In this document: positions 14,549-38,981 of the stretch, in pieces
How the letters are laid out: every line of letters begins with the position of its first letter
Numbering within the stretch: position 1 is the stretch's first letter
Notes under the pieces: model-generated
The model's input: only the letters and a program-made list of their open reading frames with translations
The model's database searches: none
What the model was told of the DNA's origin: nothing
Assembly (NCBI GenBank): GCA_021209875.1
Contig: JAGYVD010000001.1
Span: 3,968,001-4,032,000 of the forward strand
From: Rosellinia necatrix
Taxonomy: Eukaryota; Ascomycota; Sordariomycetes; Xylariales; Xylariaceae
Reading direction: 5' to 3'
Length of the DNA stretch: 64,000 bases
Program-made: the position numbers and the translations under genes

Positions 14549-16414
14549 TCAGTTAACGGCATCGTTGGGGGAGTTCTTCCACTGCATTGTTTCGGGGTCA
14601 AGGTTGTCCCGCTTTGCGGTTTCCCATTCCTTACGAACAATCTCTGCCCTCTTTGCGTCGCGGGGTGCGATGACGAAATCAAACGGTAGCGGCGCGGCCA
14701 GGAAACCTTGAGTAATTTTCGTAGGATCGGGAACGACTTCCTTCCCGGCACCGTCCAGAGGCCTCTTGAAATCAAACGCCCACAGCAACCTCGAGATACC
14801 GAGGAAGAGACTGCGATCCGCGACGTGGATCCCGGGGCAGATCCGCCGTCCGGCTCCGAATGCAAACTGGTCGCGCTGCGAGACATCCGGGTTGACGGCC
14901 GCATCGTAGAAATTCTGCTTATCGTCCTTGAAACGGTCGGGGTCGAACTGCTGCGGGCGCGGGTAGCGAGCTGTGTCGCTGTGTATCGTGAAAACGTTGT
15001 TCACGAGGGCCGATCCCTTTGGCAATCGGAATCCCATGTATTGATCATCCTGCGTCAGAGCATGAGGCATAGCGCCCATAATAGTCACGGGCATCCAACG
15101 AAGAGATTCCTTCACACACCCACGTATGTACTGTAAGTTCGGCTCGTCTTCGGGAGAAGGCATCCTGTCTGGACCTACTACTCGGTCAAGCTCGGCCTGT
15201 GCGCGCTCTTGCACCTCGGGGAAGAGGAGCATGGCGCATAAAAACCAGATGAGAGTGTTCGCTGTCGTATCGGTCCCTGCTTCCAAGAGCGTTCCGGTGA
15301 TATACGCAGCGAAGTCGTCGTCGAAGCCATGTTTCTTCTGTTCTCGAACAAGACCTACGCTAAAAGAGGGATTTGGCCTTTCTCGGGATAATATGTCGGC
15401 TTTGGCTTTGTCCCAGTGATACCTGTAAAGAATCTTCTCCTGTTTATGGTTTGATATAGCATGTTGCTTCACGGGGAGCATCCACGTCGGAAGCACTTGC
15501 AAAATGGGCAAGTAGTCAAGTAACGCAGCCAGGCCTGTTTGTGCAAGTAAGAGAAATTCATCGAGTACCTCGAAGAGTTCTTTGAAGTGAGGGTCCTCGA
15601 AAGTCAGGACTCGGTATCTAAAAGTTCAGCTATTGTTCAGTCCAAGGAGAAGATATGAAGTATTAGGGGCCTCTTACCCAAACGTGGTGGTCGTCATGAG
15701 AGAGTTCGAGTATCGACGAACATGCTGCACGAAATTGTTGGGGTCGCTAAGAATATCGTGCATCATTTGTTGATTCTCCAGCATTTGGTAGGGTTCGAAG
15801 GCCTCGGCGGCATGGATGTTCAGGAGGTCATGCATGATACGCCGAACCTTGGAGGTGGTCAGCCAGCACCCTTAAAGATGGTAAGACGGTAGCATACCAT
15901 TCTCCAAGTTTGTCCGTATTGCTAATAACATGGTAAAGAGATTTAGCACTGGATCAATACCTCAATCTAGGGGCACTGGACTTGCCATCATCAGGACTCT
16001 CAGCCCCCCGCTCGCTACCGTTTGGCCGATGTACATATCCATTCTGTCGCTAGATATAGCGCTTCTCTTATCCATGATGTCCTTTACCGCACGGTCGCTA
16101 GAGAGGACGATCATGGTTTTAGTTCCTAGTATCAAGCTATACACCGGTCCATATTCTTCCGCCCACTTTTGGAACTGCAAATGGACATCGTGCTTAGGTA
16201 TCTACAGATGATCAACAAAGTTATCAACGGATTGCGTTGCTGCAAGCTATGTAGCATTCAGTCTTACTAGATGGAGGTTTCCTAAGATGGGTATGGTCGG
16301 AGGCCCTGGTGGAAGGTCTCTTGGCCGTCGGCCAATCCGCAGAATCTGCCGGGAAAGGATAGCCAACAAAACAGCGACTACAGTGATAGTGACTTGAGAT
16401 GAAGTATAGGCCAT
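14549..16414 (-). CDS. Cytochrome P450 monooxygenase
   Basis: Five exons on the minus strand: 16414-16268, 16201-15986, 15921-15898, 15847-15678 and 15617-14549, encode 541 residues. An N-terminal membrane anchor (VTITVVAVLLAILSRQILRI) precedes the proline-rich hinge DLPPGPPTIPILGN. The oxygen-binding I-helix AGTDTT is near 299-304, the ExxR pair in ESLR is at about 356-359, the PERF-like segment is FDPDRF, and the haem loop FAFGAGRRICPG places the axial Cys at about 446. The protein is a full-length microsomal class II fungal P450, similar in layout to the CYP64/CYP65-type enzymes of secondary metabolism. Exon 3 is only 24 bases (QYGQTWRM), and the intron before it begins with GC instead of GT (GCAAGT). 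Both are needed to keep the conserved W-R helix-C segment. The gene is transcribed away from the rhodopsin-domain gene across a 1.5 kb spacer. A hydroxylation step on the cluster product is likely; the substrate is unknown. Confidence 0.93.
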
Positions 16415-17932
16415 GCCTTCGGTTTGATATGAGAGAAAATGGGCGAAGCTATTATGTCTGAGTTCCTAGATATTCTCTCGATCGGTTGGGAATATGAAGT
16501 ATGAAGGACTAATAATGAAAACATATTGCCGAGTGAGTTTGCGAGCCTCCAATATCTGGGTTTCTAGGGTAGCTTACGTTATCGGTGATGCACTTCGTAC
16601 CCCAAGCAACAAACACATGGCATAACCCATGTAAGCCCGATAGCATTATTATGCAAGGTCATCTATCAGGTCACTTTGAGGCAAAACATCAATCCTTGGA
16701 GGAGCGGAAAGCTTTCCTATTTGTGTCCTATCTGCTCACCCTACATGATATTATCTCCTTGTTGCATCTAACTCGGCCGTGTCTCGCACTATGCCACCCT
16801 ACATGAATAGTGCCAATCCCAGTTGTGATGAAAAAGACACGGATGAGACACCAGCCGAGGCATGCCCAGGATCTTTTCCAGATATATCCCGAACGGAATC
16901 CTTTGAGTTCTTTGCTTCATGCAATACAACGTCCTGCAGTTCCCACCTTTATCATGTTAATCTAGTCGGCCTTTAATGATACCCCGTTATGTTCTTCTGT
17001 TTAGGCCTAAAGACATACCCAACCTCCCCCGCAACGGATTCTCCCGCAGCTAACATCTTCTTGGTCATGGGCAATACTACTAGGATCGGACGTAGATCAC
17101 ATACACTACAAAAGTAGTAGGCTCCTGCCGGTCGAATGCACTGGTGACAGTAGAACCATCAACCACCTACCTGGTTGGTTGATCCTTTGCGATGCAAGAA
17201 GCTAGTACCAACAAGAGGCTCACCTAATCCAACTGAGATGTTTCTGGGCTACGAAGTTCTATATGACTTTGACGCACACATATACGGAACTCAGGGTGAC
17301 TTCTAGTCACCTTCTTTTTTGTTCAATGCCACGTTGAAATCCTATAAATCCCACATGTCCCACACATGGTGATTGTAGTGGAAAACGTCACATTGTTGTG
17401 ACGCACTACGGAAAACGAGCAAAACAGCTGAGAGCATGGGAAGAGACAAGACAGAGTGATAGAGGCCTCCTTATAGCTTTAACAGGTTATAACGGGAAAG
17501 TGATATTTGTTAAGCATGGTACTAAGCACGACTCGCCATATCCAAACGGTAAAGGGTGTATAACCCCCCATTGTGGATTAGGAAGTATTGAAAACGTTTT
17601 TGAAAGAGGGATTTGGAAAAAAAAAAAAAAAAAAAGCTCGATTAATATTAGGAAATAAATGAATATCGGTTGGTTATATAAGGACTTCGGCAGTAAAGGG
17701 CTTGCAAAAATGAGAATATTATCGTCTATTTGAAAATATAAATTTATCCATGTTTGATTTTATACATGCCTAGTTCGCGTAATATTACTTCGGTTTAAAC
17801 CCCTTAACTACTTAATATCCTTAAGTACATCGGAACATGTTTTATTATTGTCACATATCACGCTCTATTTTAACTCGGGAGCTTCACAACATCACCTCGT
17901 CTCATTTCGCTATTGAACACCCAATAACAAAA
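16415..17932. other. Shared upstream region of P450 and rhodopsin-domain genes
   Basis: A divergent promoter region of 1.5 kb. It has an A run at 17618-17634 and becomes AT-rich over 17640-17830. No gene is supported. It could carry regulatory sites for both genes, but I see no motif I can name. Confidence 0.5.
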
Positions 17933-19299
17933 ATGGCGGACTCTGACGATCTATCACCAACTATCGAAGCCGTCACATGGCTTCTGGCCCCCATTGCCAT
18001 CATAGTCGTGGTGCTTAGATTCTACACTCGCGCGATCATTGTGCGCCGCGTAGCATGGGACGACTGGATCATGCTGCTCGCGCTCGTACGAGTCCCCCCC
18101 CCTGGCACATTGCGAATTCTTTGTCTTGCTAACCGAGAACTGCCACTCAATAGGCGCTAATGCTAGTAGACAGTATCTTCGTTCAACTTTCGATTCATTA
18201 CGGGCTAGGTCGCCACCAGCACACGCTCGATCCAGATAATGCCGTCCAGGCCATCAAGTGGGATTACTTGGCTCAGCCGCCGGCCATCATCGGCCCTGCG
18301 TTCGGCAGGATATCGTTTGCTATGTTGCTCTTGACCTTGGTGACCGTCCAGAAGCCTCGACGATATCTTCTCTACGCGATAATCGTCTCCCAGTTTATCG
18401 TGAACAACCTCGTTTACATCTTGATTCTGACCCAGTGCAAACCGATCGAGTCCCTCTGGGACTACCGAATACATGGCGACTGCTGGAATCTGGTGTATCA
18501 GAGGAATATTGGATTTTTCCAAGGCTGTCAGTAATTAATCAGCAGTGGGGGTGACGATCTCCGGAAGCTGATAGAACTTACAGCCCTAAATGCGGCTACC
18601 GATCTTGCCTTAGCAGCCTTCCCAGCCGTAATCGTATGGCAGCTCCAAATGAAGCTCTCTCAGAAGTTGTCTCTGGCAATCCTAATGGGTCTTGGTGTAT
18701 TGTAAGTTTCGGTTGGTTTCTCTCTCTTTCTCTCTCTCGAACTTATGACAAACACCATTTATTCACTGTTACTTCCTTTCTTACAAACTGACATCTTTTA
18801 AGTGCCATGGTCGGATCAATATTGAAGACGGTCTACTTGCCATCGGTTGGAAGCCGAGACGATTACACTTACCATACCGCCAATTTGATCATCTGGTGGA
18901 CGTGAGTTCGCCTGACAGTATTACAATCGGCCCTCCTTTTGTTAACCCCGTTTTAGCGTCGAAGGCTACCTTGTCATCATTGCGGCCTCTATCGCTACAC
19001 TGAGGCCCCTAATAGCGAAACGGAGGGGAACTACCAGCGTTTCCAGTAACTCATACCGCATAAGGACTTTCGGCTCAGGCGGGCGCAAGGGCTATAATTC
19101 AACTGCAGACCATACGGCGGATGAATTTCCCCTGACGTTTACTGGTACGGAGGCGGGCACGGCGCAGCCTAACATCGAAGCCGATCATGACATGGCCAGC
19201 TCATCTAATGAGTTACCCGAAAGCCAAGGAGGAAAGAGCATCCGAAAGACCGTGAGCATCTCCATTGACGTAACGGGGAATAGCAGAGCGAGGGCCTAG
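17933..19299 (+). CDS. Rhodopsin-domain (Pth11-like) integral membrane protein
   Basis: Five exons, 17933-18085, 18154-18526, 18584-18701, 18803-18901 and 18957-19299, give 361 residues with matching phases and standard donors. The start MADSDD is preferred over an upstream in-frame ATG at 17837. The protein shows the fungal rhodopsin-domain pattern: an N-terminal helix (AVTWLLAPIAIIVVVLRFYT), the signature RRVAWDDWIMLLA, HYGLGRH after helix 2, a Cys-containing loop (LTQCKPIESLW ... GDCWN), FFQGSLNAATDL before helix 5, and a final helix VEGYLVIIAASIATLRPL. A polar cytosolic tail of about 90 residues follows. The family contains the Pth11-type putative G-protein-coupled receptors, but most members are unassigned. 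Such genes are often found inside or beside fungal biosynthetic clusters; a sensing or transport-related role here is inference. Confidence 0.9.
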
Positions 19300-19911
19300 G
19301 TTGACGCTCGGATGACGTATGATCACGGCGACGTAAACCGCTGGCCGGTACATGAAAATGAAGGTATTGCATATGAATAACTGCGTTAGCCTTTCCTTGT
19401 TTAGCTACATCGATAGCATAATCTGCGAAGGAATGCACCTAGATACATGTAATATATCAATGCTAATATTGTTGGACGTTACATCTTTCGGGTTATACCC
19501 CTTTTCGAGCTGCAGTGAAGCATTATAGTAGAATTGCTAACTTTAGATTATAATTACTAATTAATCACTAGTTAGTTACTTTATCTTGCCCCTTGGAGAC
19601 ATGACAATTATAACGTCTCGAAACCTAAGAGGACTTCAGAGAGCACTGATGATATTGACTACTTATCTAACATCCAAGAGCAAGAGAGCAAATAATTGTT
19701 CAGTGTACAAGGACGAAAGTGGAGGGGATATATATGTACAAAAGTTTACTAAAATCAAGCATGGGCTCTTATAAAATGCAATTCATTCTTAATCAGATCT
19801 CTTAAATCACCTAGATTGCTCTGTGATCAGTCCCCGTGGCCCACCAATACTAATATGTTGAACAGGCTCCTTGCCCCGAACTTTGAAGCACAGCAACTAC
19901 CTACTCCTATT
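19300..19911. other. Convergent intergenic spacer, AT-rich
   Basis: It lies between the 3' ends of the rhodopsin-domain gene and the methyltransferase gene and is AT-rich over about 19500-19800. No gene or named signal is seen. Confidence 0.5.
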
Positions 19912-20845
19912 CTAGATTATGTTTTGTCCCCAGGTCCAGTGGAAGTTTGCGCTGATCGCAGTTCCATTCTGGACATCTACCCTAGCCGCCTCAACTAGTT
20001 TGCGCACGTCTTCTTTGGTATATCTTCCCTTTAGGGTCCCGTTCTCCACGAGACCGGTAAGAGATTGCGCCATGATCAGTAGCCCGGGTTGTTCATCCAC
20101 GGGGGTCATACTTGACTGTCGCAGCATAGCAAAAATCTTCTCTTCAACATTCGCAAGACCAGCTTCCTTGAACTGAGAAGGGAGCCGAACAGGGGCCCTA
20201 GTTATGAGAATTAGTAAACTCTGACTCGCCGAAGCGTGGTGAAGAGGCGGGATGCATTGGCAATTGGGTTACGACAAAAGTCTACTCACAATGGATCTCG
20301 GCCCAGCAAGATTCCCACCTCGGATTCGAGTTTGACCCATTGGAAATAAGGTTCACTCCAAGGAGACGAACTCCAACTGTAGGGGCCGGTCTCTTGCCAG
20401 AAGAGAAAGCCACCAGGTGCGAGTAGCTTTTTCAGATTCTTCACTGCCAGAAGCCATTCGTCCTTCTTCAGTGCGAAGATGAGGAACCTCACGTGCACGA
20501 CGTCATATTTGCCGGTGGCCTCTGGGGAGAAGGGCTTGAAAATGTCGGCGAATTGTAGTTTGACATTCCGGGGGAGCGTCGTTGGATCTGGAAACTTGAT
20601 CACATCGATATCGTAACCATCGATGACGGCGGTCTCGGGAAGCTTCTGAGACAGCTCCGTGGCCCAGATGCCGGTGCCGGTGCCGACATCGGCAATTTTG
20701 GGGGGCTTCCAACCCCTTGACGTGCGCCCAGACGGGGGCCGGAAGCTCTCCCCCCGGCTAGGTCACGGAAGAAATTGTGCTGTATCCTCAGCCGTTTCAC
20801 CTCGTTGTCCCAATCGTGATTGAGGTTGTACACAGCGGATGACAT
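19912..20845 (-). CDS. Class I SAM-dependent methyltransferase (two frameshifts in this sequence)
   Basis: Exon 1 is 20845-20290 and exon 2 is 20197-19912. The reading frame changes twice near the N-terminus. One surplus base in the run at 20750-20755 and one in the run at 20700-20705 separate MSSAVYN...FFRDLAGG, ELPAPVWAHVKGLEAP and KIADVGTGTGIWATELSQ. Removing both gives 279 residues with perfect splice phase (Leu codon split at the intron). Motif I of the SAM site is IADVGTGTGIW. The acidic end of strand 2 is in IDGYDID, and VVHVRFLIFALK and LLAPGGFLFWQE match motifs II-III of the methyltransferase-25/LaeA-like group. Members act as small-molecule methyltransferases or regulators of secondary metabolism in fungi; which applies cannot be told. 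The catalytic core is intact, so an error in the sequence is as likely as real loss. A 13-bp tandem repeat lies 36-100 bp upstream of the start. Confidence 0.82.
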
Positions 20846-20880
20846 GATGGCGTCTAGTGGTGGTGCTAGCGATGATGCCC

Positions 20881-20945
20881 GTGATGGGATCTAGTGATGG
20901 GATCTAGTGATGGGATCTAGTGATGGGATCTAGTGGTGGCGTCTA
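20881..20945. repeat. 13-bp tandem repeat upstream of the methyltransferase
   Basis: Four perfect copies of GTGATGGGATCTA and a fifth degenerate copy (GTGGTGGCGTCTA). A related degenerate unit occurs just to the left (about 20849-20865). The array is 36 bp from the methyltransferase start codon, so it lies in its promoter or 5' leader. Confidence 0.9.
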
Positions 20946-21621
20946 TTCTGTCTAGTTACAACCACAATATTCATTATTGTGATGAATTACTAGGATGAAT
21001 TACTGTGATGGGGTGAAGGGAAGAAGGTTATGTCGCGGCCAATGTGAAACGCAACAAGTAATAACTAAAAGTAAGCCTGTACCATGATGTCAATTTATCC
21101 CTTCCAATGTCTTTTCTTACCAAGTCCGTTTGGAGGTCCTTCCAGGCCCAACTTCTCTTAATCCGAGTTGTTGGCTGTTGATTGTGGATTGTTGGTTGGT
21201 AACGGCAGCAAAGGAGAGGAGTAAGCAGAAGAGGGGGGGGGCCTGGCTTGCAGTGGTAGATGCCGCAATGGTTGCGGTTGCCCTGAATGGCGATGGAGAA
21301 TAACAACTTTGAAGGCAGGCAAGTGCTTAGGAGGGGGAGGGGGGGGGGTAGTCACATCACATCACTGCCGAGGCCATTTTATCCCGTCTCCTCCAAATGG
21401 CGCCGTTCTTTCCCTTTACGGCCAATGTGGTCGCGTTTCGCCGCTAGTTATGCTGTATCACCGGTTCGGTTGCACATATGCGCCGCTCCGCCGCTCCCGC
21501 ACTCACACGCCTCTCCCGGGCAGCAAGTTCCCCCCGTTTCCTCTCGGCTGGCCACGTAATCCCCATATTGTCTCCAGGCTCTAATACCGGGCTGGCCACT
21601 GCTGTACGTAACGCGATATCT

Positions 21622-21712
21622 ACCAGTACCTACCTACCTATCTATCCCTACCTGCCATCTATCCCTACCTATCTATCTATCCCTACCTACCTACCCCTAC
21701 CTACCTGGGTAG
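21622..21712. repeat. CTAC/CTAT tetranucleotide microsatellite
   Basis: About 90 bp of interrupted CTAC, CTAT and CCTA units in intergenic DNA. Confidence 0.8.
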
Positions 21713-21799
21713 GTGCTTGCAGTGCCATGCGGGCATCATCCGCAGTGTAAGCAGGGGTGTCAATCTAACAATCAGAAGGCGACTTGCACATGCCGTATG

Positions 21800-21842
21800 T
21801 ATGTACTGTCATATGTACTGTCGTATGTACTGTTGTATGTGC
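21800..21842. repeat. 12-bp tandem repeat, TATGTACTGTCA-like
   Basis: Three and a half near-identical copies of a 12-base unit (GTACTGTCATAT, GTACTGTCGTAT, GTACTGTTGTAT). Intergenic, no known role. Confidence 0.75.
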
Positions 21843-23169: not shown

Positions 23170-24637
23170 ATGACTTCCCCAACGACAGACGCCGAAGTTC
23201 TCATTGTCGGCGCCGGCCCCGTAGGTCTATTTATAGCCTTACGTCTAGGCCAAGCTGGCATATCGGTGGCCGTGCTGGAGAGAGACGGTGATCTGTCGCA
23301 GCTCCCAAGAGCATGTATGTTTTATCCTCAAGTCCAGTTTGCTCTGGACCAGGCTGAGGTATACAACGACCTTATCGAAGAGGGGGGTGGGTTCAGGACC
23401 ACGGGCCTCGACATCCGTCTTCCCCCGGCATCTAACAGCAACGGGGGCAAGAAGCCCGGACAGCTGGTTGCCAATTTCCCGAGGGAAGATGCTGCCGAAT
23501 TCAACCCCAAAGGCCCTCCACGGGCACCCATGGATGGTACCCCGGCTATCAGCATGCTTAATATTCCGCAGTCGCAGATGTGTCGGGTTTTAATGAACAA
23601 GGCTGTTGGCACCGGCCACGTCCGAGTCTTGTTTAACAAGGAGCTTATCTCGATCGAGAGCAACGGGAGCGGCGAGGGCAACCCAAACGTGTCGATCAGA
23701 GTACAAGACCTCGTTTCCAACACTGAATCTCAATACACGGCTTCATTCTTGATTGGTGCAGACGGCGGTAGGTCGAAGACCAGATCACTCCTAGGAATTC
23801 CCTTTCCCGGCCACACCTGGCCGGAGAAACTTGTAGCGACAGACGTATGGCTACCCAATGAGGATGGTGGCCCGGCCACGACGACGCTTCTCATGGATTC
23901 CGTGCATTACACCGTCCTTTCGCCTCTCACCCCCCCAATCCTGGGCGAGGTGTCCAAATGGCGAGTCACCTTCGCCCTCAACCCGGAAGAGTTGAAAACC
24001 AAGGACGACGAGGACTTCTTAACAGAAGGGTACATTGCTCAACATTATGAGCGAGTTTGGGTCGGCCCCCGTCCGCTGTCGTATAAGATTGATAGAAAAG
24101 CAATTTATACCGTCCACCAGCGCCTCGCCGCAACCTTGAAGAAGGGAAGATGCCTCCTTGCCGGAGACGCCGCCCATGTCAACAATGTGAGTCTGAAAGC
24201 AAACGAGCTCATACCCTACGAAGACAGGATCTAATCTCCCTATCCCGAGCTTAGGTCATCGGCGGCCTGGGCCTGAGCAACTGCCTACTTGATTCTGTGG
24301 CCCTCAGCGATGCGCTGGTCATGATATTGCGAGAGGGCAAGCCTGCAGATCCTGTACTGACCATGTACTCGGATGAGAGGCGCCAAGTCTTCCAATTCTT
24401 CGTCGATCCGGTCTCAAGCTGGGTACGTACAGTTGATGCACCCGTCTACTACAGCACTAATATGTTTTTGATTCGTTTTTACAGAGTAAGCTGAGGATCC
24501 AATCCGGAGAGGCTGATGACTGGTTCTTTCGTTCCCTGAACGACACCTCCAGCCCTTCGTTCGCGAGATACATTGATACGCTAGAGAACTTTTGGCCAAC
24601 GCACATTAGAGACACGGCTAAGCTCTTAGCTACGTAG
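23170..24637 (+). CDS. FAD-dependent aromatic-type monooxygenase (PHBH fold)
   Basis: Three exons, 23170-24186, 24255-24422 and 24485-24637 (GTGAGT and GTACGT donors, all phase 0), give 445 residues. The Rossmann dinucleotide site VLIVGAGPVGLFIALRLG lies at residues 10-27, the DG motif IGADGGRSKTR near 194-204, and the GD motif CLLAGDAAHVN near 328-338, split from VIGGLGLSNCLLDSVALSDA by intron 1. This order defines class A flavoprotein monooxygenases (FAD_binding_3), which use NAD(P)H and O2 to hydroxylate or oxidatively cleave aromatic and related substrates. The C-terminal thioredoxin-like domain seen in phenol hydroxylases is absent. A conserved Pro-Arg segment (SQLPRACMFYPQ) typical of substrate-binding loops follows the first helix. 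It lies 1.3 kb ahead of the ammonia-lyase gene on the same strand, consistent with ring oxidation in one pathway. Confidence 0.93.
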
Positions 24638-25939: not shown

Positions 25940-27932
25940 ATGGCGAATTTTACGGATCTTCTACTACAACACTGGAATGGCCTCGCCGTCTCGCAGGCCA
26001 CCGTCGACGGCCACTCGCTGACGGTCGCGGACGTCGTGATGGTCGCGCGGCATCTCCTCCCCTCTAGCCTAGCGCCCGAGGTCGCGGAGACGATCGCGCG
26101 GAGCAACGCGGTCGTCGGCGACAAGCTGGCCAAGGGAGACGTCATCTACGGGACGAACACCGGGTTCGGTGGGAGTGCCGACACGCGGACAGCCGCCCAT
26201 CGAGGATTGCAACAAAGCCTCTTTTCCCATCTGATGTTCGGGATATTAGCTGGCGATACACCCTTGCCATCTACCAAAAAGCCCAATGGATCTGTCAACG
26301 GATCTGCCAACGGGTCTGTCGGGGATCACTCATCCGCCCATAGCAATGGCGCCGTCAAAGCGAACGGGTCTACGTCATCTACTTACCACCCACCGGATAT
26401 CCTGCTCCCAATCAACGAGCCGGCGGGCGCCACGACCATGCCGGAGTCCTGGGCCCGGGCGGCCATGGTGGTCCGGCTGAACTCGCTGAGCCGGGGGGCC
26501 TCGGGGATACGGATGTGCGTGGCGGAGTGCCTGGTCGACTTCCTGAACAAGGACATCGTGCCGCGGATTCCCGTGCGCGGCAGCATCTCGGCGTCGGGCG
26601 ACCTGAGCCCGCTCAGCTACATCGGGGCGGCGATGCAGGGGAAGCAGTCGGTGACCGTGTTCACAGGGCCCCGCGCGAAGGGGGCGGCGGGGGGGAAGAA
26701 GAGGCGGGCGGTCGTCCGGGCCGACGCCGCGCTCGCCGCCGCTGGCATCGCGCCCGTTGAGATCCAGGCCAAGGAGGGGCTGGCGATCGTCAACGGCACC
26801 GCCGTCTCGGCCGGCATCGCCTCCCTCGTGTTGCACGAGTGCCTCGGTCTGGCCGGGTTGTCGCAGGTGCTGACGGCCATGAGCGTCGAGGCCCTCCTCG
26901 GCACCGAGGAGAGCTTCGACCCCTTCATCGCCCAGATCCGCCCGCACCCGGGCCAGGTAGACTCCGCCGAGAATATATATGCGTTCTTGCGCGATTCCCG
27001 GCTGACGACGTCGAACGACAATCCGCTCAAATCAAACGCCGGCGAGCTATTCCAGGACAGGTAAACCCAACCCCCCGTCCCCCACCTCCCTCCCTCCCCC
27101 CCCCTTGATAATATGTGGCAGTTGATATAGCTATGACTTTTGCTGACGTAATATACTTCAGATACTCCATCCGTACCGCGAGCCAGTGGATCGGCCCCGT
27201 TCTCGAGGACTTCACATTAGCCTACCAGCAGATCACAACAGAGATTAACTCAGCGACCGACAACCCGCTCGTCGACGCGGCCAACGGCGGCCGGGTCCTC
27301 AGCGGGGGGAACTTCCCAAGCGAAAGCAGTGACGTCGGCGGTCGAGAAGCTGCGGCAGGGCCTGCAGTCCTTGGGGCGGATGCTGTTCACGCAGTGCACG
27401 GAGCTGATCAACCCGGCGACGAGCCGGGGCCTGCCGCCGAACCTGGCGTCGGACGACCCGTCCGCGAGCTACCTGTTCAAGGGGATCGACGTGATGACGG
27501 CGGCGCTGACGAGCGAGCTCGGCTTCCTCGCCAACCCGGTCGGCAGCCACGTGCAGACGGCCGAGATGGGCAACCAGGCGCTCAACTCGCTCGCCCTCAT
27601 CTCCACGCGCTACACGCTCGAGGCTGTCGAGGTCTTCGCCCAGCTCGCCGCCGCCCACGTCGTCATCGCCTGCCAGGCGCTCGACCTGCGCGCGCTCGAG
27701 TGGGAGTTCCGCCGCGCGCTGGCGCCCCGGTTCGCCGGGCTGGTCCGCGCGTGCGTCGCGTCCGGCGAAGGCAACGATGACGACGACGACGCGCAAGCAG
27801 CAGAGACAGCAGTCATAGTAGAAGATCTCTGGGCGCGCTTCCAGCGCACGTGGGAAGCGCATTCGAACATGGACCTCGACGAGCGCGTCAGCGCGGCCGT
27901 CGCGTCGCTCGAGGGCGCCTTGATCAAGGGGT

Positions 27933-27964
<32 letters not shown>

Positions 27965-28429
27965 TCCCGCGCCACCAACGGGGGAGGAGGAGGCGGGCTA
28001 TCCGAGACGCTGGTGGCCGTGGCCGGGACGCAGGCGGAGATGCGGCGCGCGGCGTGCGAGGCGTATAGGGAGGCGCGGGCGCGGTTCGGCGACGGCAAAG
28101 GCTTGCCCGCGAGCGCGTACCTCGGCGCCGCGAGCGCGCGGCTGTACCGGTTCGTGCGGCGCGACCTCGGGGTCCCGCTGATCGGGGAGGCGCTGCTGCG
28201 CGGCGCGGACAACGTGCCCGAGGCCGGGCTGTACGCCGTCGCCACCACCCTGGAGGAAGAGGGGGACGAGGGAGTGGAAGGAGAGGGCTTGGCGCCTAGT
28301 CTGGGGACCTACCTGACCGTCGTGTACGAGGCCATCCGCTCCGGAAGGCTGTATGCCGTCGTCGTAGCCTGCCTCGAGGACGCGCAGAAAGCTGGGGGGC
28401 CTGGGAGTCGGACGAATGGGCACGCTTGA
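25940..28429 (+). CDS. Phenylalanine/tyrosine ammonia-lyase (MIO family; one frameshift)
   Basis: Exon 1 is 25940-27060 and exon 2 is 27162-28429. One surplus C at 27315-27317 shifts the frame; without it the protein is 795 residues and carries the family block GGNFQAKAVTSAVEKLRQGL. Upstream in-frame starts exist (from 25862). The catalytic Tyr is in VIYGTNTGFGG (Tyr70), the Ala-Ser-Gly triad that cyclises to the MIO electrophile is in GSISASGDLSPLSYIG (218-220), and AIVNGTAVSAG, SNDNPL and QSLGRMLFTQCTEL are all present. The length and C-terminal extension are those of eukaryotic PAL rather than histidine ammonia-lyase. The reaction is non-oxidative loss of ammonia from Phe or Tyr to give cinnamate or p-coumarate. 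The selectivity pair reads His97-Leu98 (SLFSHLMFG), the state linked with tyrosine use in characterised TALs. A low-complexity Asn/Gly/Ser insert spans about 112-148, and a poly-Ala/Gly stretch lies in the C-terminal shielding region. The gene is very GC-rich. Confidence 0.92.
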
Positions 28430-30610: not shown

Positions 30611-32204
30611 ATGTCTAAACCACTGAACGGCGCTGCCAGTGACACCTCTCTTCTTGCCCTGGCCGAGAATGTGCTGAAGAAAACTGAAGAGATTGTTGCG
30701 TATCTACGGGCCAACAATTTACCGGAGCCGACATTTTCCGCCGATTCACCTCTGACCCCTGAGACGGCGGAATATACGGCTCTTTATGGTGGCTTGACGA
30801 ACTCCCTCGAAGACCTCCAGCGCCTGGCACAAGGCCCAAGGAAGCTCCTACAATCGGTCTCCCTCTTGGGCTTCGAGTTGGCCGCCTTCCAGATCGCGCT
30901 CGAGTTCGACTTCTTCACCATCGTAGTGCCCGGACAGGAGATATCGGTCCATGAGCTAGCCGAGAAGGCCGGTCTGGACCTCGACCGCACGAGGCGTACC
31001 GTAGGTATGCTAATGACCCACAGGTTCTTCCAGATGACCAGGCCCGACTGGATCTCTCACACCTCCCATTCTATCATCCTGTATCAGGATGTGGAAATCC
31101 GCTCCGCGGTTCACTTCTGGTGAGTCAAGCATGACAAATTTTATAAAAATAAAAATAAAAAATAAAAAATTAAAAACAATAGTCTCTTCCGGGAAAGGAA
31201 AGAGTTAGCGTTGATATGTTTTTTTTTTTCTTACTCTTGTGTCTGTACCCAGCCTCGACGAGATGCTCAAAGCGGCGGCGGATTCCAACGTGAGTCTGAA
31301 ATCGGCACCGCACGAATCCGATAGCGAGCATTGCCCGTTCAAAACCCGACATGGCGTATCCATTTTCAAGTATTACACCCACCACCCTGAATTAGCCGGC
31401 CGTTTTGCCCGAGCGATGGCCGGCATCACAAAGAGTGCGTCTTGTTGCATTTTCTAGCCGCATCCCATCCCTTCCTTGACTTTTCAAAGTTAGAGATGTT
31501 AATTCGAGAGCTTGCGAAGTGGGCCGCGATACCAATCAGTTGAAGGACTGCTTCCCCTGGGACCGCCTCGACGGCACGGTCGTGGATGTAGGAGGTGGGA
31601 GCGGGCACGTCTCGATGATGTTAGCCGAAGTAAGTTGAACCCTCCCGCTCCCCCGCCCCGCGGGCTGGCCCATGCGCACAGTAATCATAAAAGCGACCGC
31701 TGCTGACGGTGGTGTGCCGAAACGAAGCTCTTCCCTCGACTGAGCTTCGTCGTCCAAGACGAGTCGGCCCCGATGCTCGCCGAGGGTGAGACGCTGTTGA
31801 ACGACGGCATCCGAGACCGCATCTCGTTTGCCCGTCACAACTTCTTCACCCCGCAGCCGTATCGGGGTGCGGCCGCCTTCCTCATGCGCCAGATCTGTCA
31901 CGACTGGTGCGACCGCGACGTCGTGACCATTCTCAAGGGCATCGTGCCGGGACTGGAAGGGTCTGATCCAAACACGCCTCTACTGATCAACGACAACGTC
32001 ATGCCGCAGCCGGGGGATTGGCCGCGCCATGCTGAGCGCGCCGCGCGAGACCTGGATATGATCATGATGATGTCTTTTGGTTCTAAGGAGCGCACTAAGG
32101 AGGAGTTCGAGGCCCTCTTAAAGGAAGCGGATTCTCGATATGAGATTCGTAATGTTCACGCTGCCGGATCTATGAGCTTGCTGGAAGTATACTTGAAACG
32201 ATGA
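30611..32204 (+). CDS. COMT-like O-methyltransferase
   Basis: Four exons, 30611-31119, 31253-31434, 31520-31629 and 31728-32204, give 425 residues. The third acceptor (GAAG at 31516-31519) was chosen because it keeps the family spacing (MAGITKMGRDTNQLKDCFPW); acceptors a little upstream also stay in frame. An N-terminal winged-helix dimerisation part (GFELAAFQIALEFDFFTIV, then ELAEKAGLDLDRTRRTVGML) precedes the SAM-binding motif VVDVGGGSGHVSM at about 248-260. The catalytic base His of the family lies in RQICHDWCDRD near residue 325. LLINDNVMP and LDMIMMMSFGSKERTKEEF complete the usual C-terminal motifs. These enzymes methylate phenolic hydroxyls using S-adenosylmethionine. Its position between the ammonia-lyase and the A-T-R enzyme, all on the plus strand, suggests methylation of a phenolic intermediate of the same pathway (inference). 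Complete and intact. Confidence 0.93.
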
Positions 32205-33122
32205 TTACCACAGAATAGGTAGAGACGAGTGCGCATGTCTTTTTATATGACAATAAAATAACTACAAGCATCATTCATTAACGTTCCTCTTTGGTCTATT
32301 TATGTTCGTACATATCTGTGAATGAATATGTAGATTTGTATCCGAAAATTGGCATCATAATTATGAACTACTACTATTTAGAAGGGCTTTGCCTCGGGAC
32401 GACATACCCAATTCACAAACCACGGGATATCCCATTTGGAATGCAAGCATAAGGATGAGGGGGGCCACTGCTACTCATTCGCAGCCGGGGGCCTCCTCCA
32501 GCACCAAAAATGGCTGGTCAGGCGATAATAAGGGGCTGTGATTCCAGTAGGATGAGACCATGCCGATTTCCAGTTTTTCGTTTTCGCATTAAACATCTAA
32601 TCGCTGGAAGGGTCTGTGGGTAACTCGTTTTCCAATGAATTTCACCGCTCTTTACGATGAATCCCGGGCGAGGTAGCTCTCGGCAAATGTAAGCTTGGTC
32701 CTTGAGGTCGCCTTCTGCGAAAGCAAGGGTGAATGGTAGGGTAGGTAGGGTCGGATGCCGAAAAAATCATGCAGCAAGCGGGCAGGCGGTTTGCGTCCAA
32801 CGGGGAAGAGAGAGAGAGGCGTTGGCGTTGGGACACATGGATTACTGTATTGGGAAACCTAATAAGACCCCTTGCGCCCATTTCCATCCCCCTTACGTAG
32901 GTATAAGGAGAAGGAAGGACATAGAATTGCTAAAGAAACGCCACATATCAAAAAAAGACTAACGTAAATAAAAAAAAAAACAATCAAATAAAAGGACGCG
33001 AGCTCGGTAGGTCGCTCTTCATCAGACACATCTCCGTGATTATCCCTCTCGGATGCTTTAATACGTCTAGTTAGCCCATCAGCGAGTTTAAAAAAAAAAA
33101 AAAAAGAAAAAGAAAAAAATTA
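32205..33122. other. Upstream region of the A-T-R enzyme gene
   Basis: About 0.9 kb without a supported gene. It contains A runs at 32972-32981 and 33091-33105 just ahead of the start codon. Confidence 0.5.
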
Positions 33123-36100
33123 ATGATGCCCGACTTTCTGCTGAAAGAACTGTCCCTGGACAGGGTCCTCCGCCGCCTGGCGGAGGAGATCCCCGACCGG
33201 GTGCTCATCTCGTATCCCACGCGCACGCTCGACTTCAAGCACTTCACCGCGGCGGACTTGGAGCGGCTGACGAGGGCCGTCCTCGCGGTGCTCCCCGCGC
33301 ATCTCCGGGTGCCGATGGACGACACGCGCCCGGGCGAGAGGCCCGTCGTGGCCGTCGTGGGCATATCGGACCTGGAGTACCACCTGTACTTCCTCGCGCT
33401 GCAGCGGGTGGGGTGGAGGACGCTCCTAATGTCGCCGCGGCTCGCCGACCAGGGCTTCGCGCACCTGCTGCGGCAGACGGGGTGCGGGACGGTGGTGACC
33501 TCAGAGGCCTCGGCGGAGGCCATGAGGCGAGTCCGGGACGCGGAGGCCTTCAAGCTCGACATCGTGCCCATGGCCGACATACAGACGCTCGAGGAGGTCG
33601 GCCGAGGAGGAGGAGAAGGAGAAGGAGGAGGGTCTCTTCCCCCCCGGCGACGCCAACCCACTACTATCACCCTTACCCCTACCCCCGCCCCTACCACTGC
33701 CGTCCCTCCCTGCCCCGGCAGACCTCAAGTCCCCCCGCGGACTCGCCGCAGCTCATCATCCACAGCAGCGGCACGACGGGGCTGCCGAAGCCGGTGCCGC
33801 TGAACGTCGGCGAGTGGCTGCTGCAGAACGCGGAGCTCGTCGAGCGCATCCCGCACCGCGACACGCTGACGACGCTGCCCGTGTTCCACAGCTTCGGGAT
33901 CGGCACGCTGTTCCGGATGCTGGTCGGCGGGCGGCGGCTGAGCGTGATGAGCGCGGAGCGGCCCGTGACGGCGTCGGGCCTGCTCGCGGCGCTGGACCTG
34001 ACGCGGTCCGGCACGCTCGTGACGGTGCCGCACGTGCTCAAGTTCTGCGCCGAGATCCGCGGGGGGGCCGCGCGCCTGGCGCAGCTCGGCTCCGTCGTCC
34101 TCGCCGGCTCCGCCGTCCCGCAGCGCCTCGGCGACGACCTCGTCGCCCGCGGCGTCACCATCAGCACCATCTACGGCCAGACGGAGAGCGGCGGGCTCAT
34201 GCAGCCCGGCTCCGGCCGCGACTGGTGCTGGGTTTCGCCGCTGCCGCACGCCGAGCCGTTCATGAGGTTCGAGCCCGTCGAGGAGGGCGGCGACGGGAGC
34301 CTCTATCACCTCGTCATCCTACCCGGCCTGCCCACCAAGACGCTCTCGAACCGTGACGATGGCTCCTATGGCACCAACGACCTCTTCGAGCGCCACCCGA
34401 CCGACCCGAGGAAGTGGAAATTCGCCGGCCGCGCCGATGACATTATCGTCTTGGTCAACGGCGAGAAGGCGGACCCGACGCCGCTGGAGCAGGCTCTGTC
34501 CCACAACGCCAACGTCCATGCCGCCGTGGTGTTCGGCGCCGGCTATGATTCGCTCGGAGCCTTGGTCGTTCCATCGGAGAGTGCGTTTGGGCTTTCCACA
34601 GCGGAGCTTCTTGATAGCATCAAGCCCGATCTAGAACTCGGAAATGCGAAAGTGCCAGCATATGCGCGGGTATCTCCTGACTCCGTCATTTTCAAGGACG
34701 CCAGCTTCCAAGTGCCTATGACCGCAAAGTCTACGCTCATCCGATCCAAGTTTCTAGAGTTATGTAGGGGAGACATTGAACGCTTCTACACCGCAAGGGA
34801 TCTAGGGAATGAAGCCCACACCCCAGTCGCGGATGAAGATATAGAATTACTTGTTCGAAAGACTATTAAGTCAGTCCTGTCGATTGAAAGGGAGAAGCTG
34901 ACCAACGATTCCGACTTCTTCTTCCTGGGAATGGACTCCTTGCAAGCATCCCATGTTAGGTCACGGCTGCTCAAACGGATCGGACTTGTTGGTTCCTCGC
35001 TGGCCACAAATGTGGTGTTCGAATGCCCAACCGTCAATCGTCTTACTAAGCATATACTGGACGTCCGCCACGCCCGGGATCCCGCATCCGGCTCCGAGAT
35101 ACTTAAGCCATTCGCAGAGAGCCTGGTGGAAAAGTATACTCAGTTTCTGAAGATCGAGCTGGGGGCCCCAGCAAACCCAGCAACACCAGCAACGCCGGCA
35201 ACAGCTTCGGGGCAAGTAGTTGTAAGTAGCGGATAAGGAGACGCCCCTGTTTTTCGTGCATTCGTCGCTAATTTCTGCACACTCCAGCTTCTGACGGGGG
35301 CGACTGGCACCATCGGCTGCCACGTCTTGCACGACATGGCCCGCCAGCCTGGCATAGACAGGATATATTGCCTGGTCCGCGCTGATGGGGACGGCGCGGC
35401 AGAGCTGCGCGTCGCCAAAGTCCTCGCCGACACCCGGCTCGATGACCTAGATGGCTCTCAGCTGTCAAAGATCATCCCTCTCGCGGCCACGTTCGGGGAG
35501 CCTCGCTTCGGTCTCACCAACCAGACATACGAAGATCTCCGCTCGTCGGTTACGACAATCATTCACGGCGCTTGGGCGGTAAACTTTAACATGACCCTGA
35601 GATCGTTTGAAGAACCGCACATTTCGTCCGTCGCCCACCTCCTAGATCTCGCGATGCATTCTCCCCAGTCTCCCAAACCAACCTTCTGCTTCCTCTCCAG
35701 TGTCGCATCCGCGCTCCGTGCGAAGGATTCTCCCCCTCCGGGAACTGCAATACGAGTGGGAGACTACGAGCGAGATGGGCTACGGGCAGTCGAAATGGGT
35801 AGCCGAGAAAATCTGCGACGCGGCCGCGCAACATGCGAAGAGCTGCGGCGTCGACTTCCCCCGTCAAGATCCTACGCATTGGCCAGGTGGCCGGCGATAC
35901 CCGTCACGGCATGTGGAATCCGACCGAGACGATCCCCATCATAGTCCAGAGCGGCCTCACCACCGGCGTGCTCCCGATCACCGACGGGATCCACGACACC
36001 CATTTCTGGCTGCCGGTGGATTTCGCCGCCGTCTCGATCGTCGAGCTCGCGTTCAAGGACACTTCGGGTACGCCGTCGGCGGCGGGACCGGCGCCGGTGT

Positions 36101-36480
36101 TCCACGTGTCGAACACCACGCCCGTGCGGTGGGGTTCCGAGTTCCTCCCGGCGCTCCGCAGGCAGGGTATGGCCTTTGAGACGGTCCCGGCCAGCGACTG
36201 GCTACGGCGCTTGGAGCGCTTGAACTCGGAGGACGAAGAAAACCCGGCGTGTCGCTTGCTGGACTGGTTAAAGCGCAAATACGAGCCGGCGGCGGACTCG
36301 GAACGTCTGGATGACAACCTTGAGATGGATTTGACGGCTTCCATGCAGTACTCAAGTATCTTGAAGAACGGTGTGCAGATTACTGATGAGCTGGTTGGGA
36401 AATTCTTGCAGTACTGGACACAGCTGGAGGAATGGGAAAGGCTATGCGTTAATAACTTGCAAAGTGTAGGTAAGAAATAG
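33123..36480 (+). CDS. Adenylation-thiolation-reductase enzyme (NRPS-like carboxylate reductase; frameshifts)
   Basis: Adenylation: HSSGTTGLPKPV (P-loop), YGQTESGGLM, then WKFAGRADDIIVLVNGEKAD. Carrier: DSDFFFLGMDSLQASHVRS, with the phosphopantetheine Ser near residue 564. Reductase: LLTGATGTIGCHVL after an intron (35222-35287) and the catalytic YGQSK near 822. There is no condensation domain. The enzyme should activate a carboxylic acid with ATP, load it on the carrier and release it with NADPH as an aldehyde or alcohol. Two one-base shifts interrupt the reductase: a surplus base near 35740-35742 (before ELQYEWETTSEMGYGQSKW) and one in the C run 35858-35862 (DFPVKILRIGQVAG). Between the first 158 residues and the P-loop the frame also changes. 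A 125-bp intron (33597-33721, weak GTCGGC donor) fits, as does a 98-bp one (33632-33729); two more surplus bases would also explain it. Corrected length is about 1054 residues. Base composition drops sharply after about 34540. Substrate not predictable; cinnamate-type acids are a natural guess next to the ammonia-lyase. Confidence 0.9.
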
Positions 36481-37648
36481 ATTAGTACTCACGAAATAGG
36501 AATCATCTGAAACGTTTGGTTTGCAATATATAGTTTTCCGGCACGTCGTGAATTCGTGTTTTCCCGATATTACACTCCGCTTCAATTACAGCTCATAGCC
36601 CAGTATTGTACGCGTAGTTTGCACTACTGCTTATGATTTCTAGCCTTGTATAATACCTCTAGCCCCCGATCAGCCGGACAAACAAGGATCGTAGGTTGAG
36701 TAGATCGCTTTGGGTGAAATAGTGAACACAAAGACTCTCAATGTTGGGAACCAACTCCAGTCATCCAGATCATTCATTACCGAACGCCTGGTTAGTGATT
36801 GGGTTTGCAATGCAAGTTGGAGTAGCCGAGAGGCATCTGCCTCAATAATGATCTGTAAGTTAGTCGAAAAGCTCAGAATATAACAAACGTAAGTTTGTCT
36901 CCCCAAATCGTATGTGAGCAGTTGACCAGAACATTTGAAAAAAAAAAAAAGGGGGGGGGGGTGGAACGTCGGGAGTTGCCATAAACGCAAGGTAGCAGCG
37001 ATAAATCACAACCCTTAAAACAAGACGGCCTTGCAAACCGAGAACATCGCACTCTCTTTATGCGAGAATCGTGAATATAACTATTTTAATAAATTGATAT
37101 AATGCTTTTAATTCTCACACGTTCTCTCATCATGCGCTCATGCGACGACCCTCGCCCTACATCTTTATCGTAGGTATTTTTCATTCTCGCAGTACAAATC
37201 TTTCATCTGTATGTGTTGGAGGAAGGCAACAGCGACCCGGGGAGGAATGGAACAGAATTCGTTGGGGAGAAGAGCAGCTGGGCTAGTCGAGCGACGCCGC
37301 GCCAAATCTATCCGCCACAGTGTCAATCTCCCCTCGTTCATCGTAATTATTGAATCCTAGTCGCAGCTAGTTTTTATAGTATTTTCATATTCGTTGTCGT
37401 CGTAGTTACTGAATGCGCCGGCCAAATATTGCTCCCAAAATAGTTCAAAAATTGATAACTATCGTATATACCGTGAGGAGAAAAGACGAGACGTTATAGG
37501 ATGGGGAGGATATGTTCGGGTGGGTTGAATCACAATTTGCGACAGGTCGGAAAAGCTGAGAGGCTGAGTATTAAACGATCATTGGGTATCCGCAGGTAGC
37601 TGGTTGAGATGATAAAACAAAGCTGACGAGTCACAGTTGATGGGTACG
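36481..37648. other. Convergent intergenic region
   Basis: A spacer of 1.2 kb between the A-T-R enzyme and the second rhodopsin-domain gene, with an A run then G run at 36938-36961 and AT-rich DNA around 37080-37200 and 37330-37460. No gene is supported. Confidence 0.5.
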
Positions 37649-38981
37649 TTATCGGATCCGGAATAGTTCCTCGTCGGACGAGGCCGCACCCCCCGTAGCA
37701 CTCTCGTGAACCTTCGGCCCCGGCCCCGGCCCCGCCTCACTATCAGCAACCTTATTCTTATTTATATCGCGACTATTTACCACTAGCTCGTGATATGGCC
37801 CGCTCTCATCCGTGTCGCGAGTAGCACTCTTAGAAGTTGTGTCGAACAGCGTTGGAATATGCCTGAGGAGTGGTCGAAGTGCGGCCGCGGATGCTGCGAA
37901 GATAGCAAGGCCGAGCTCGATATCGGCCCATAAGAGTAGATCGTAATGAAGTCCATCCGCTTCTTTGCCCGTTGCATTTGGAAGGCGCACGATGATGACG
38001 AGTTTAACGATCGTCGCAGTACTGGCACTATAGGGCGGTGAGCCATGTTAGTCTGCTGCCCCTATTATACGGGATGCGGAGAGCTCTGGATATCTTACAA
38101 AATCCCCAAGCCAAGTAGGAACATGGCGATCAACTTGAGTCGTGTTTTCAGCTGAGAGCCCCGAAGGATGTAGATCGGGAGCAGGGCGTAGAAGTAATCG
38201 ATGAAAATGTTGGATATGGTGCGGAAATAGCCGACTTGGGTGCATCTTTCGCTTCCGGCCCAATTACTCGAACCGCCCTTAGCGCAGATGAAGGAGGCGA
38301 ATACGACAGTGATGATGGTCCAGACACCAACGACGAACATGGATCCGATCAGAAGGAAACGTATTCCCTTCCCGACAGTAATGCGGAGGAGCACCAGTGC
38401 CACAGCCAGCTTAACCAGACCCGCCGAAATATAGAGGGTTGTTTGGTTTCCATAGGTAAACTACAGAGAAGAAGGCTTGGTTAGCCAACTATCCGACGGC
38501 GTCTGAATCAGACGGTGGATCTCTAGCCGATTGAAAACATACCATTGTTGCCTTCTTCTTATCATACCAAGGCTGCTCATCCTCGGCGGCATATCCATAT
38601 CTGAGAGAGAGGGCGGGTTAGATGTCAAGGCAGATAGTGGAGAGCGGGTCATCGCGCGTTGCTTGGGCGCAAGGGGAAGGAAACGATGCTCGCGGGACCG
38701 GATGATAAACGACTAAATATACGTACTGCATGGCAGCAAAGCCGAGCCCTAGAGAAATCACGAAACCAATCTATATTCAACATTGGATCAGATGATGCCC
38801 CGGCAGGAAATGCGGTTGTAGAGAGCTTTCTTACGTATGTCAAGCACAGAACGAAGTCATCCCAACCGAACCCCCTTATGACCACTCTCGTCCGTACATA
38901 GACTCGGGCGAAAACCACGGTGCTGTCAAGAACCAAGAAGAGCACGGCCGCCGCGAACAGGCTGTCGCGATGGCTCCCCAT
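37649..38981 (-). CDS. Second rhodopsin-domain (Pth11-like) integral membrane protein
   Basis: Five exons on the minus strand: 38981-38835, 38770-38727, 38600-38543, 38460-38099 and 38027-37649, with consistent phases, give 329 residues. Exons 2 and 3 are short (44 and 58 bases). The domain pattern is VLFLVLDSTVVFARVYVRTR, the signature GFGWDDFVLCLTY, IGFVISLGLGFAAMQYGYA, then YISAGLVKLAVALVLLRI, FLLIGSMFVVGVWTIITVVF, a Cys loop (FICAKGG ... SERCTQVGYFR), FRTISNIFIDYFYALLPIYI, and the last helix WADIELGLAIFAASAAALRP. A polar, Gly/Pro-containing tail ends in EELFRIR. It belongs to the same family as the protein at 17933-19299 but is clearly divergent from it, so the pair is not a recent tandem copy. 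It faces the end of the A-T-R gene and may mark the right edge of the cluster. Confidence 0.9.

What the first reader, a model, noticed from the sequence alone, without database searches (positions are those of the whole stretch)
14549..38981. Candidate phenylpropanoid-type biosynthetic gene cluster with no PKS or terpene core
Within 24 kb lie a P450, a class A flavin monooxygenase, an aromatic amino acid ammonia-lyase, a COMT-like O-methyltransferase, a LaeA-type methyltransferase and an A-T-R carboxylate reductase, bracketed by two rhodopsin-domain proteins. The sequence shows the enzymes; the families' reactions are established. Working order is inference: Phe or Tyr to cinnamate/coumarate, ring oxidation, O-methylation, then reductive release as an aldehyde or alcohol. 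I cannot match this combination to a named fungal pathway.
Basis: partly seen in the sequence, partly recalled or inferred. Interest (0 to 1): 0.85.

Follow-up and report, generated by a model that had tools for sequence, protein, structure and literature searches.

The report
Fungal phenylalanine-to-aldehyde gene cluster
A root-rot fungus and its wood-dwelling relatives share a small set of neighbouring genes that looks built to turn the amino acid phenylalanine (or tyrosine) into a methylated aromatic aldehyde, with no product known so far, although in this genome sequence two of its key genes read as interrupted.

Summary
The enzymes are there: Pfam confirms P450, class A flavin monooxygenase (FMO), PAL-type lyase, COMT-type O-methyltransferase (OMT), LaeA-like methyltransferase and an A-T-R carboxylate reductase (CAR) within 14.5-36.5 kb. 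Best matches place the window in or beside Rosellinia necatrix. The set is a conserved cluster: in 10 other Xylariales genomes at least two of the five core genes share a contig (all five in Xylaria arbuscula; four in X. longipes, with gene-number spacing as here). No PKS, terpene synthase or UbiA match lies in the window, so the described PAL clusters (strobilurin, squalestatin, asperpentyn-type) do not fit; ten searches of an open-access library showed no description. Most likely it makes an O-methylated hydroxycinnamaldehyde or benzaldehyde by lyase, oxygenases, OMT and reductive release; families and linkage are shown, substrates and order inferred. Residue conservation is still that of working genes and a similar change occurs in a GC-rich synthase gene elsewhere, so an assembly fault is somewhat likelier than recent loss. 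One rhodopsin-domain gene lies inside the cluster, so the two do not bracket it.

The parts
14549..16414 (-). Cytochrome P450, 541 aa, 5 exons, one GC-AG intron (15922-15985); open throughout
   Evidence: Exon model; PF00067 258.5 bits; best relative 90% identical over the searched piece; haem motif FGAGRRICPG read directly
17933..19299 (+). Fungal rhodopsin-domain (PF20684) membrane protein, 361 aa; inside the cluster, role unknown
   Evidence: Gene model; PF20684 156.7 bits
19914..20845 (-). LaeA-like class I methyltransferase; frame seems to change near 20.70-20.75 kb, but a 95-base intron model is an alternative
   Evidence: Frames printed; intron model; PF13489 42.8 bits on the 139-aa core
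23170..24637 (+). Class A flavin monooxygenase, 445 aa, 3 exons, open
   Evidence: Gene model; PF01494 162 bits; R. necatrix protein of the same length 97% identical over 443 columns; nearest solved relatives PnpA and HspB
25940..28429 (+). Aromatic amino acid ammonia-lyase (PAL family) with the MIO-forming Ala-Ser-Gly; frame changes near 27.31 kb
   Evidence: PF00221 on two pieces; frames; X. longipes orthologue passes TIGR01226 at 560.2 vs 519.15 bits
30611..32204 (+). COMT-type O-methyltransferase, 425 aa, 4 exons, open
   Evidence: Gene model; PF00891 82 bits; motif HDWCD (H-WCD in all six aligned sequences) (catalytic role of the His recalled)
33123..36480 (+). A-T-R NRPS-like carboxylate reductase (1,027-1,057 aa in seven named relatives); frame changes near 35.73 and 35.86 kb, either side of the Tyr-x-x-x-Lys motif of the reductase domain; 33597-33721 unclear (intron or further change)
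   Evidence: PF00501, PF23562, PF00550, PF07993; alignment to seven orthologues
37649..38981 (-). Second fungal rhodopsin-domain protein, 5' exons not fully modelled; membership of the cluster unproven
   Evidence: Model; PF20684 79.1 bits

Best explanation
A conserved Xylariales biosynthetic cluster for a small O-methylated aromatic aldehyde (or the alcohol from it). Working order (inferred): the PAL-family lyase removes ammonia from Phe and/or Tyr to give cinnamate or p-coumarate; the P450 and the class A FMO hydroxylate the ring; the OMT methylates a phenol; the A domain of the A-T-R enzyme adenylates the free acid, the T domain holds it as a thioester and the R domain releases it as an aldehyde. 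I favour retention of the C6-C3 side chain (a hydroxycinnamaldehyde) because Pfam showed no separate CoA ligase or chain-shortening gene in the genes and gaps scanned. Shown: the protein families, their motifs, the conserved linkage. Inferred: substrates, order, product, and that the pathway runs in this strain.
For: Families. PAL cut-off passed by the orthologue, histidase and aminomutase cut-offs not reached. The A domain's best solved match is 4-chlorobenzoyl-CoA ligase, an aryl-acid activator, with His where amino-acid-activating A domains carry Asp (rule recalled). A-T-R enzymes reduce carboxylic acids to aldehydes and one accepts vanillic acid well (PMC9605436, parts 1 and 2 of 5 read). 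FMO nearest to phenol-ring monooxygenases; fungal class A FMOs that turn p-coumarate into caffeate are published (PMC12915361, passages).
Against: No enzyme of the set was assayed here, and my paper searches showed no assay. PAL and A-T-R read as interrupted in this assembly. 3 of 9 PAL orthologues (Xylaria FL0933, FL0043, Lasiodiplodia mahajangana) have no partner among the listed hits; Poronia and H. argillaceum have partners but no listed PAL orthologue. The P450 also occurs at 80-90% identity (Stachybotrys elegans, Xylariaceae AK1471, Xylaria FL1042) where I saw no other cluster orthologue, so it may have its own role. The lyase's substrate cannot be told: the His-Leu pair at the selectivity site was found in 117 of 120 listed relatives and does not single this clade out.
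Confidence: 0.45

Rival explanations
1. Same cluster, but the side chain is shortened by enzymes outside it, so that the A-T-R enzyme reduces a hydroxy- or methoxybenzoic acid to a vanillin-type benzaldehyde (C6-C1).
For: In the asperpentyn cluster a PAL supplies p-hydroxybenzoate although the cluster genes named contain no chain-shortening enzyme (PMC12356543, passages). Clade VI fungal CARs are proposed to reduce NR-PKS-derived aryl (orsellinic-type) acids, and PnlA took vanillic acid (PMC9605436).
Against: I could not place this A-T-R enzyme in a CAR clade; no benzoate-specific gene is seen.
Confidence: 0.3
2. Independent of the product: the cluster is a relic in this lineage. PAL and A-T-R genes are really broken in R. 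necatrix and nothing is made, while Xylaria and Hypoxylon keep it.
For: Three frame changes in two genes, none in P450, FMO, OMT and first rhodopsin gene. G/C runs of five or more are no rarer in the open FMO (5 in 1,338 bases) than in PAL (7 in 2,389) or A-T-R (8 in 3,292). R. necatrix FMO and OMT are in the protein database on one contig, but no R. necatrix PAL or A-T-R protein is among the 120 best hits, within the length window.
Against: Positions invariant in all orthologues are changed in the window at only 8 of 339 (PAL; nine orthologues 0-11 of 331-342) and 19 of 512 (A-T-R; seven orthologues 5-54 of 498-547), as in working genes. Control in the same genome: of 31 PF07993 matches 18 run through 230 positions or more in one frame; of three others looked at, one stays in frame and two change frame without room for an intron, one of them in a GC-rich synthase gene with the same look (C8:2.908 Mb), so such changes also occur outside the cluster. 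The R. necatrix P450 is not listed either, though open here.
Confidence: 0.38
3. A member of the asperpentyn/biscognienyne/eutypine group (PAL, UbiA prenyltransferase, P450, decarboxylating FMO) that makes an epoxyquinoid.
For: PAL, P450 and FMO are shared; R. necatrix is reported to make rosnecatrone (PMC6933693, passages; that it is an epoxycyclohexenone is recalled).
Against: No UbiA in the window; the two matches on contig C1 are about 3 Mb away on either side. No cupin or SDR in the genes and gaps scanned. An FMO that removes the carboxyl would leave the A-T-R enzyme without substrate.
Confidence: 0.05
4. Unrelated tailoring genes that lie together by chance.
For: The P450 is more widely distributed than the rest.
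Against: Conserved linkage in 10 genomes.
Confidence: 0.03

Closest known systems
Asperpentyn (aty) cluster and its kin (biscognienyne, eutypoxide, iso-A82775C)
   Same: Dedicated PAL, P450 and FAD monooxygenase in an ascomycete cluster; also in Xylariales (Eutypa lata)
   Different: Those have a UbiA prenyltransferase and reductases or cupin; here none was found, but an OMT and an A-T-R carboxylate reductase
Strobilurin and squalestatin clusters
   Same: PAL feeding a natural product
   Different: PAL leads to a benzoyl starter for a PKS (PMC6158276, passages); no ketosynthase in this window
A-T-R fungal carboxylate reductases with NR-PKS (AtCAR, StbB, CicB, PnlA)
   Same: Same domain order and reaction type
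   Different: Partner is a PKS making an orsellinic-type acid; here a PAL is the only acid-supplying enzyme found
Brasiliamide pathway of Penicillium brasilianum
   Same: Fungal phenylpropanoid with PAL activity in extracts (PMC6152788, passages) and an A-T-R enzyme (BrsA, L-Phe)
   Different: Brasiliamides are bis-phenylpropanoid amides; BrsA is put in the amino-acid clade, while this A domain lacks the Asp of that type (rule recalled)
Plant monolignol pathway (PAL, C4H, C3H, COMT, 4CL+CCR)
   Same: Would give the same class of aldehyde
   Different: One A-T-R enzyme would replace 4CL and CCR; the FMO is unrelated to the plant P450s (recalled, inference)

Membership tests
Phenylalanine ammonia-lyase (TIGR01226) | Scores above the equivalog cut-off | tested here: met
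   X. longipes orthologue P0001 560.2 vs 519.15 bits; the window's own gene, interrupted, was not scored whole
Phenylalanine ammonia-lyase (TIGR01226) | MIO-forming Ala-Ser-Gly | tested here: met
   SISASGDLSPLSY in window exon 25940-27058, aligned to 1y2m
Histidine ammonia-lyase / aminomutases (TIGR01225, TIGR04473, TIGR04475, TIGR03832) | Scores above cut-off | tested here: not met
   Orthologue P0001: 294.4 vs 539.15, 318.5 vs 1250, 243.2 vs 800, 190 vs 501 bits
A-T-R carboxylate reductase | Adenylation, carrier and reductase domains in one protein | tested here: met
   PF00501, PF23562, PF00550, PF07993; orthologues P0121-P0127 have all four in one protein
A-T-R carboxylate reductase | Uninterrupted gene in this genome | tested here: not met
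   Frame changes near 35.73 and 35.86 kb
A-T-R carboxylate reductase | Reduces an acid to an aldehyde | not testable with these tools
   Needs an assay
A-T-R carboxylate reductase | Clade I-VII of PMC9605436 | not tested
   Reference sequences not at hand
Asperpentyn-type cluster | UbiA prenyltransferase in the cluster | tested here: not met
   No PF01040 match in the window
Strobilurin/squalestatin-type cluster | PKS in the cluster | tested here: not met
   No PF00109 match in the window
Biosynthetic gene cluster | Linkage conserved in other species | tested here: met
   10 genomes with two to five of five core genes on one contig
Biosynthetic gene cluster | Co-expression | not tested
   No expression data at hand

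The most novel reading that the evidence does not exclude
Xylariales evolved, independently of plants, a clustered monolignol-like route (lyase, ring oxygenases, O-methyltransferase) in which a single A-T-R carboxylate reductase replaces the plant pair 4CL and CCR, giving coniferaldehyde- or sinapaldehyde-type products inside wood-dwelling fungi; the root pathogen R. necatrix may be losing it.
Probability: 0.22. Interest if true: 0.75.

Novelty: new variant of a known kind. Interest (0 to 1): 0.5.

Why it matters
I found no described fungal cluster that starts from an aromatic amino acid lyase and ends in A-T-R reductive release without a PKS, terpene or UbiA enzyme (ten open-access searches, listed under Tried and rejected). 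Five core genes kept together in Xylaria, Hypoxylon and others give a ready, testable set, with open versions in other species. If the product is a lignin-like aldehyde it bears on how wood fungi imitate or manipulate their substrate; if the R. necatrix copy is really broken, it marks a difference between its relatives and a root pathogen.

Tried and rejected
Rejected: chance neighbourhood (linkage in 10 genomes); histidase or aminomutase; PKS, terpene or UbiA cluster. Tried without gain: a search for PesB of Pestalotiopsis humus, a named relative of the lyase (95 papers hold two of three terms, 15 listed, none of these with PesB); the Hypoxylaceae survey PMC8403587 (terms searched: no 'ammonia lyase', no 'cinnam'; unclustered A-T-R genes were left out of its counts); Xylaria VDL4 PMC13293291, Xylariales review PMC7732752 and R. 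necatrix transcriptome PMC6933693, terms searched only, nothing on this set; Hypoxylon volatiles PMC6296411 (polyketide origin). The AlphaFold model of the FMO is only fair (mean pLDDT 70.2), so its fold matches support the family, not a substrate. Pfam over five gene-poor gaps in six frames (10.0-14.5, 20.8-23.2, 28.4-30.6, 36.5-37.6, 38.9-42.2 kb) gave no match over a curated cut-off: no transcription factor, transporter or further enzyme there; the other gaps were not scanned so. Ten paper searches listed no paper that describes this gene set; only the listed top rows were seen, and the library is open-access, so closed papers may hold it.

Corrected on checking: the LaeA-like gene was first counted as surely interrupted; a plausible intron model makes that uncertain. 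A control on three other cut reductase domains was added and lowers the odds of real loss from 0.45 to 0.38. A first count of changed positions in the A-T-R gene had one piece in a wrong frame and is replaced; the GC3 value of one A-T-R piece was out of frame and is not used.
Full report
What was checked. The window lies in a 49.1-Mb, 12-contig fungal genome. Best matches place it in Xylariales; the OMT and FMO are 97% identical (over 413 and 443 aligned columns) to two Rosellinia necatrix proteins that share one contig. A published Nanopore-based R. necatrix R18 assembly has 49.1 Mb in 11 contigs (PMC10796067, passages and section 16), so the window is probably R. necatrix or a very close relative; this is inference.

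Anatomy. Gene models came from a simple splice-aware reading and were scanned with Pfam. From left to right: P450 (14549-16414, minus, five exons, one GC-AG intron), fungal rhodopsin-domain protein (17933-19299, plus), LaeA-like methyltransferase (19914-20845, minus), class A FMO (23170-24637, plus), PAL-family lyase (25940-28429, plus), OMT (30611-32204, plus), A-T-R enzyme (33123-36480, plus), second rhodopsin-domain protein (37649 to about 38981, minus). Neighbours with a Pfam match are a haem-dependent oxidative N-demethylase-like protein (7525-9102), DUF846 (6075-7035), a GH88 protein (42215-43503), DUF7603 (50.6-53.5 kb) and DUF7735 (56.1-56.8 kb). PF20684 is a domain of SAT4/PTH11-like membrane proteins; nothing here says it binds retinal (recalled).

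Interrupted genes. In PAL the conserved sequence passes from one frame to another near 27.31 kb; in the A-T-R gene near 35.73 and 35.86 kb, on either side of the Tyr-x-x-x-Lys motif. GT-AG introns forced there by the gene model would cut out stretches kept in 8 of 9 PAL orthologues (seven match one pattern with a single K/R choice, one more differs slightly, the ninth model lacks most of it) and in 7 of 7 A-T-R orthologues. The LaeA-like gene may change frame as well, but an intron model fits. P450, FMO, OMT and the first rhodopsin gene are open. Control in the same genome: I saw no frame change in the table of 15 chaperonin matches (by eye). Of 31 reductase-domain matches 18 cover 230 or more of 258 positions in one frame. 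Of three others looked at, one goes on in frame, two change frame, among them a GC-rich synthase gene on C8. The coding stretches are as conserved as in the orthologues: 8 of 339 otherwise invariant positions changed in PAL (nine orthologues: 0 to 11 of 331-342), 19 of 512 in A-T-R (seven orthologues: 5 to 54 of 498-547). I lean to an assembly fault, about 6 to 4, but cannot decide.

Conserved linkage. Orthologues were found by protein search (each lists only the best 120, within a length window, so absences are weak). Contigs were equated by identical length, and gene order read from locus numbers. X. arbuscula: all five core genes on a 299,075-bp contig. X. longipes: P450 g1038, FMO g1041, PAL g1042, OMT g1043 on a 184,366-bp contig, which leaves two gene numbers between P450 and FMO, as in the window. 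X. curta: A-T-R g1276, P450 g1280, PAL g1283 on 30,996 bp, another order. H. crocopeplum: PAL, A-T-R, FMO. Poronia punctata: A-T-R, OMT, FMO. H. texense: A-T-R 010852, PAL 010854. H. argillaceum: A-T-R, P450. Nemania FL0031: PAL, P450. Xylariaceae FL0255: partial A-T-R, P450. R. necatrix: OMT, FMO. Of nine PAL orthologues six have at least one partner on the same contig; of seven named full-length A-T-R orthologues six have (the X. longipes A-T-R is from another assembly). For the contigs of more than 1 Mb (H. crocopeplum, H. texense) equal length alone is weak; the H. texense gene numbers are close.

Enzymes. The X. longipes lyase passes the PAL cut-off and fails the histidase, phenylalanine and tyrosine aminomutase ones. 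The nearest solved structure to the window's first lyase exon is the PAL 1y2m. A pattern found His-Leu at the selectivity site in 117 of 120 listed relatives, so Phe or Tyr cannot be told apart. The A domain's best solved match is 4-chlorobenzoyl-CoA ligase. The FMO is closest to p-nitrophenol 4-monooxygenase PnpA and to HspB by sequence (148.4 and 114 bits), to PnpA also by a fair model, and matches the 3-hydroxyphenylpropionate/3-hydroxycinnamate hydroxylase models only far below cut-off. Class A FMOs with p-coumarate 3-hydroxylase activity are known from Trametes versicolor (PMC12915361, passages), so ring hydroxylation of a coumarate by such an enzyme is possible. The OMT keeps the motif around the catalytic histidine.

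Reading. A lyase that makes an aromatic acid, two oxygenases, an O-methyltransferase and an acid-to-aldehyde reductase form a self-consistent route to an O-methylated aromatic aldehyde. I favour a C6-C3 product since no chain-shortening gene was found, but the asperpentyn cluster shows that a cluster PAL can feed p-hydroxybenzoate without one (PMC12356543, passages).

Compared with what is known. Strobilurin and, as told in the same paper, squalestatin use PAL on the way to a benzoyl starter for a PKS (PMC6158276, passages); the window has no ketosynthase match. Asperpentyn-type clusters have PAL, P450 and FMO too, but with UbiA (PMC12356543; PMC11376284, section 19); no UbiA lies in the window. 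NR-PKS-linked CARs share the A-T-R enzyme but not the PAL (PMC9605436, first two of five parts read). Penicillium brasilianum shows PAL activity for brasiliamides (PMC6152788, passages). The combination here matches none of these; ten searches of an open-access library listed no description of it.

Noticed in passing
own genome G000 C2:5,596,900-5,611,000 (L013, L014): A second PAL-family gene lies beside a highly reducing PKS (KS, AT, DH, ER, KR, ACP) and a tryptophan dimethylallyltransferase-type prenyltransferase within about 15 kb: another PAL-containing candidate cluster.
   Followed up: partly
own genome G000 C3:1,935,575-1,937,239 (L015, L016): Third PAL-family gene of the genome; of its neighbours only one long frame was scanned, without a Pfam match.
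   Followed up: no
own genome G000 C8:2,907,300-2,909,200 (L022): Carrier-reductase end of a synthase gene that changes frame inside the reductase domain and carries a long Gln/Ser/Ala-type repeat.
   Followed up: partly
window 25940-28429: The lyase gene is much richer in G+C (GC3 0.83-0.90) than P450 and FMO beside it (0.60-0.63) and carries runs of Ala, Gly and Asp.
   Followed up: no
window 15922-15985: GC-AG intron in the P450 gene; gene finders that allow only GT-AG would cut the protein.
   Followed up: no
window 7525-9102: Haem-dependent oxidative N-demethylase-like gene (PF11927) on the left flank, outside the cluster as defined.
   Followed up: no
P0288, P0298, P0303, P0323 (database proteins): Close FMO relatives in Elsinoe, Sphaceloma and Colletotrichum (65-69%); no A-T-R protein of these genera is among the 120 listed: the FMO may serve other pathways too.
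   Followed up: no
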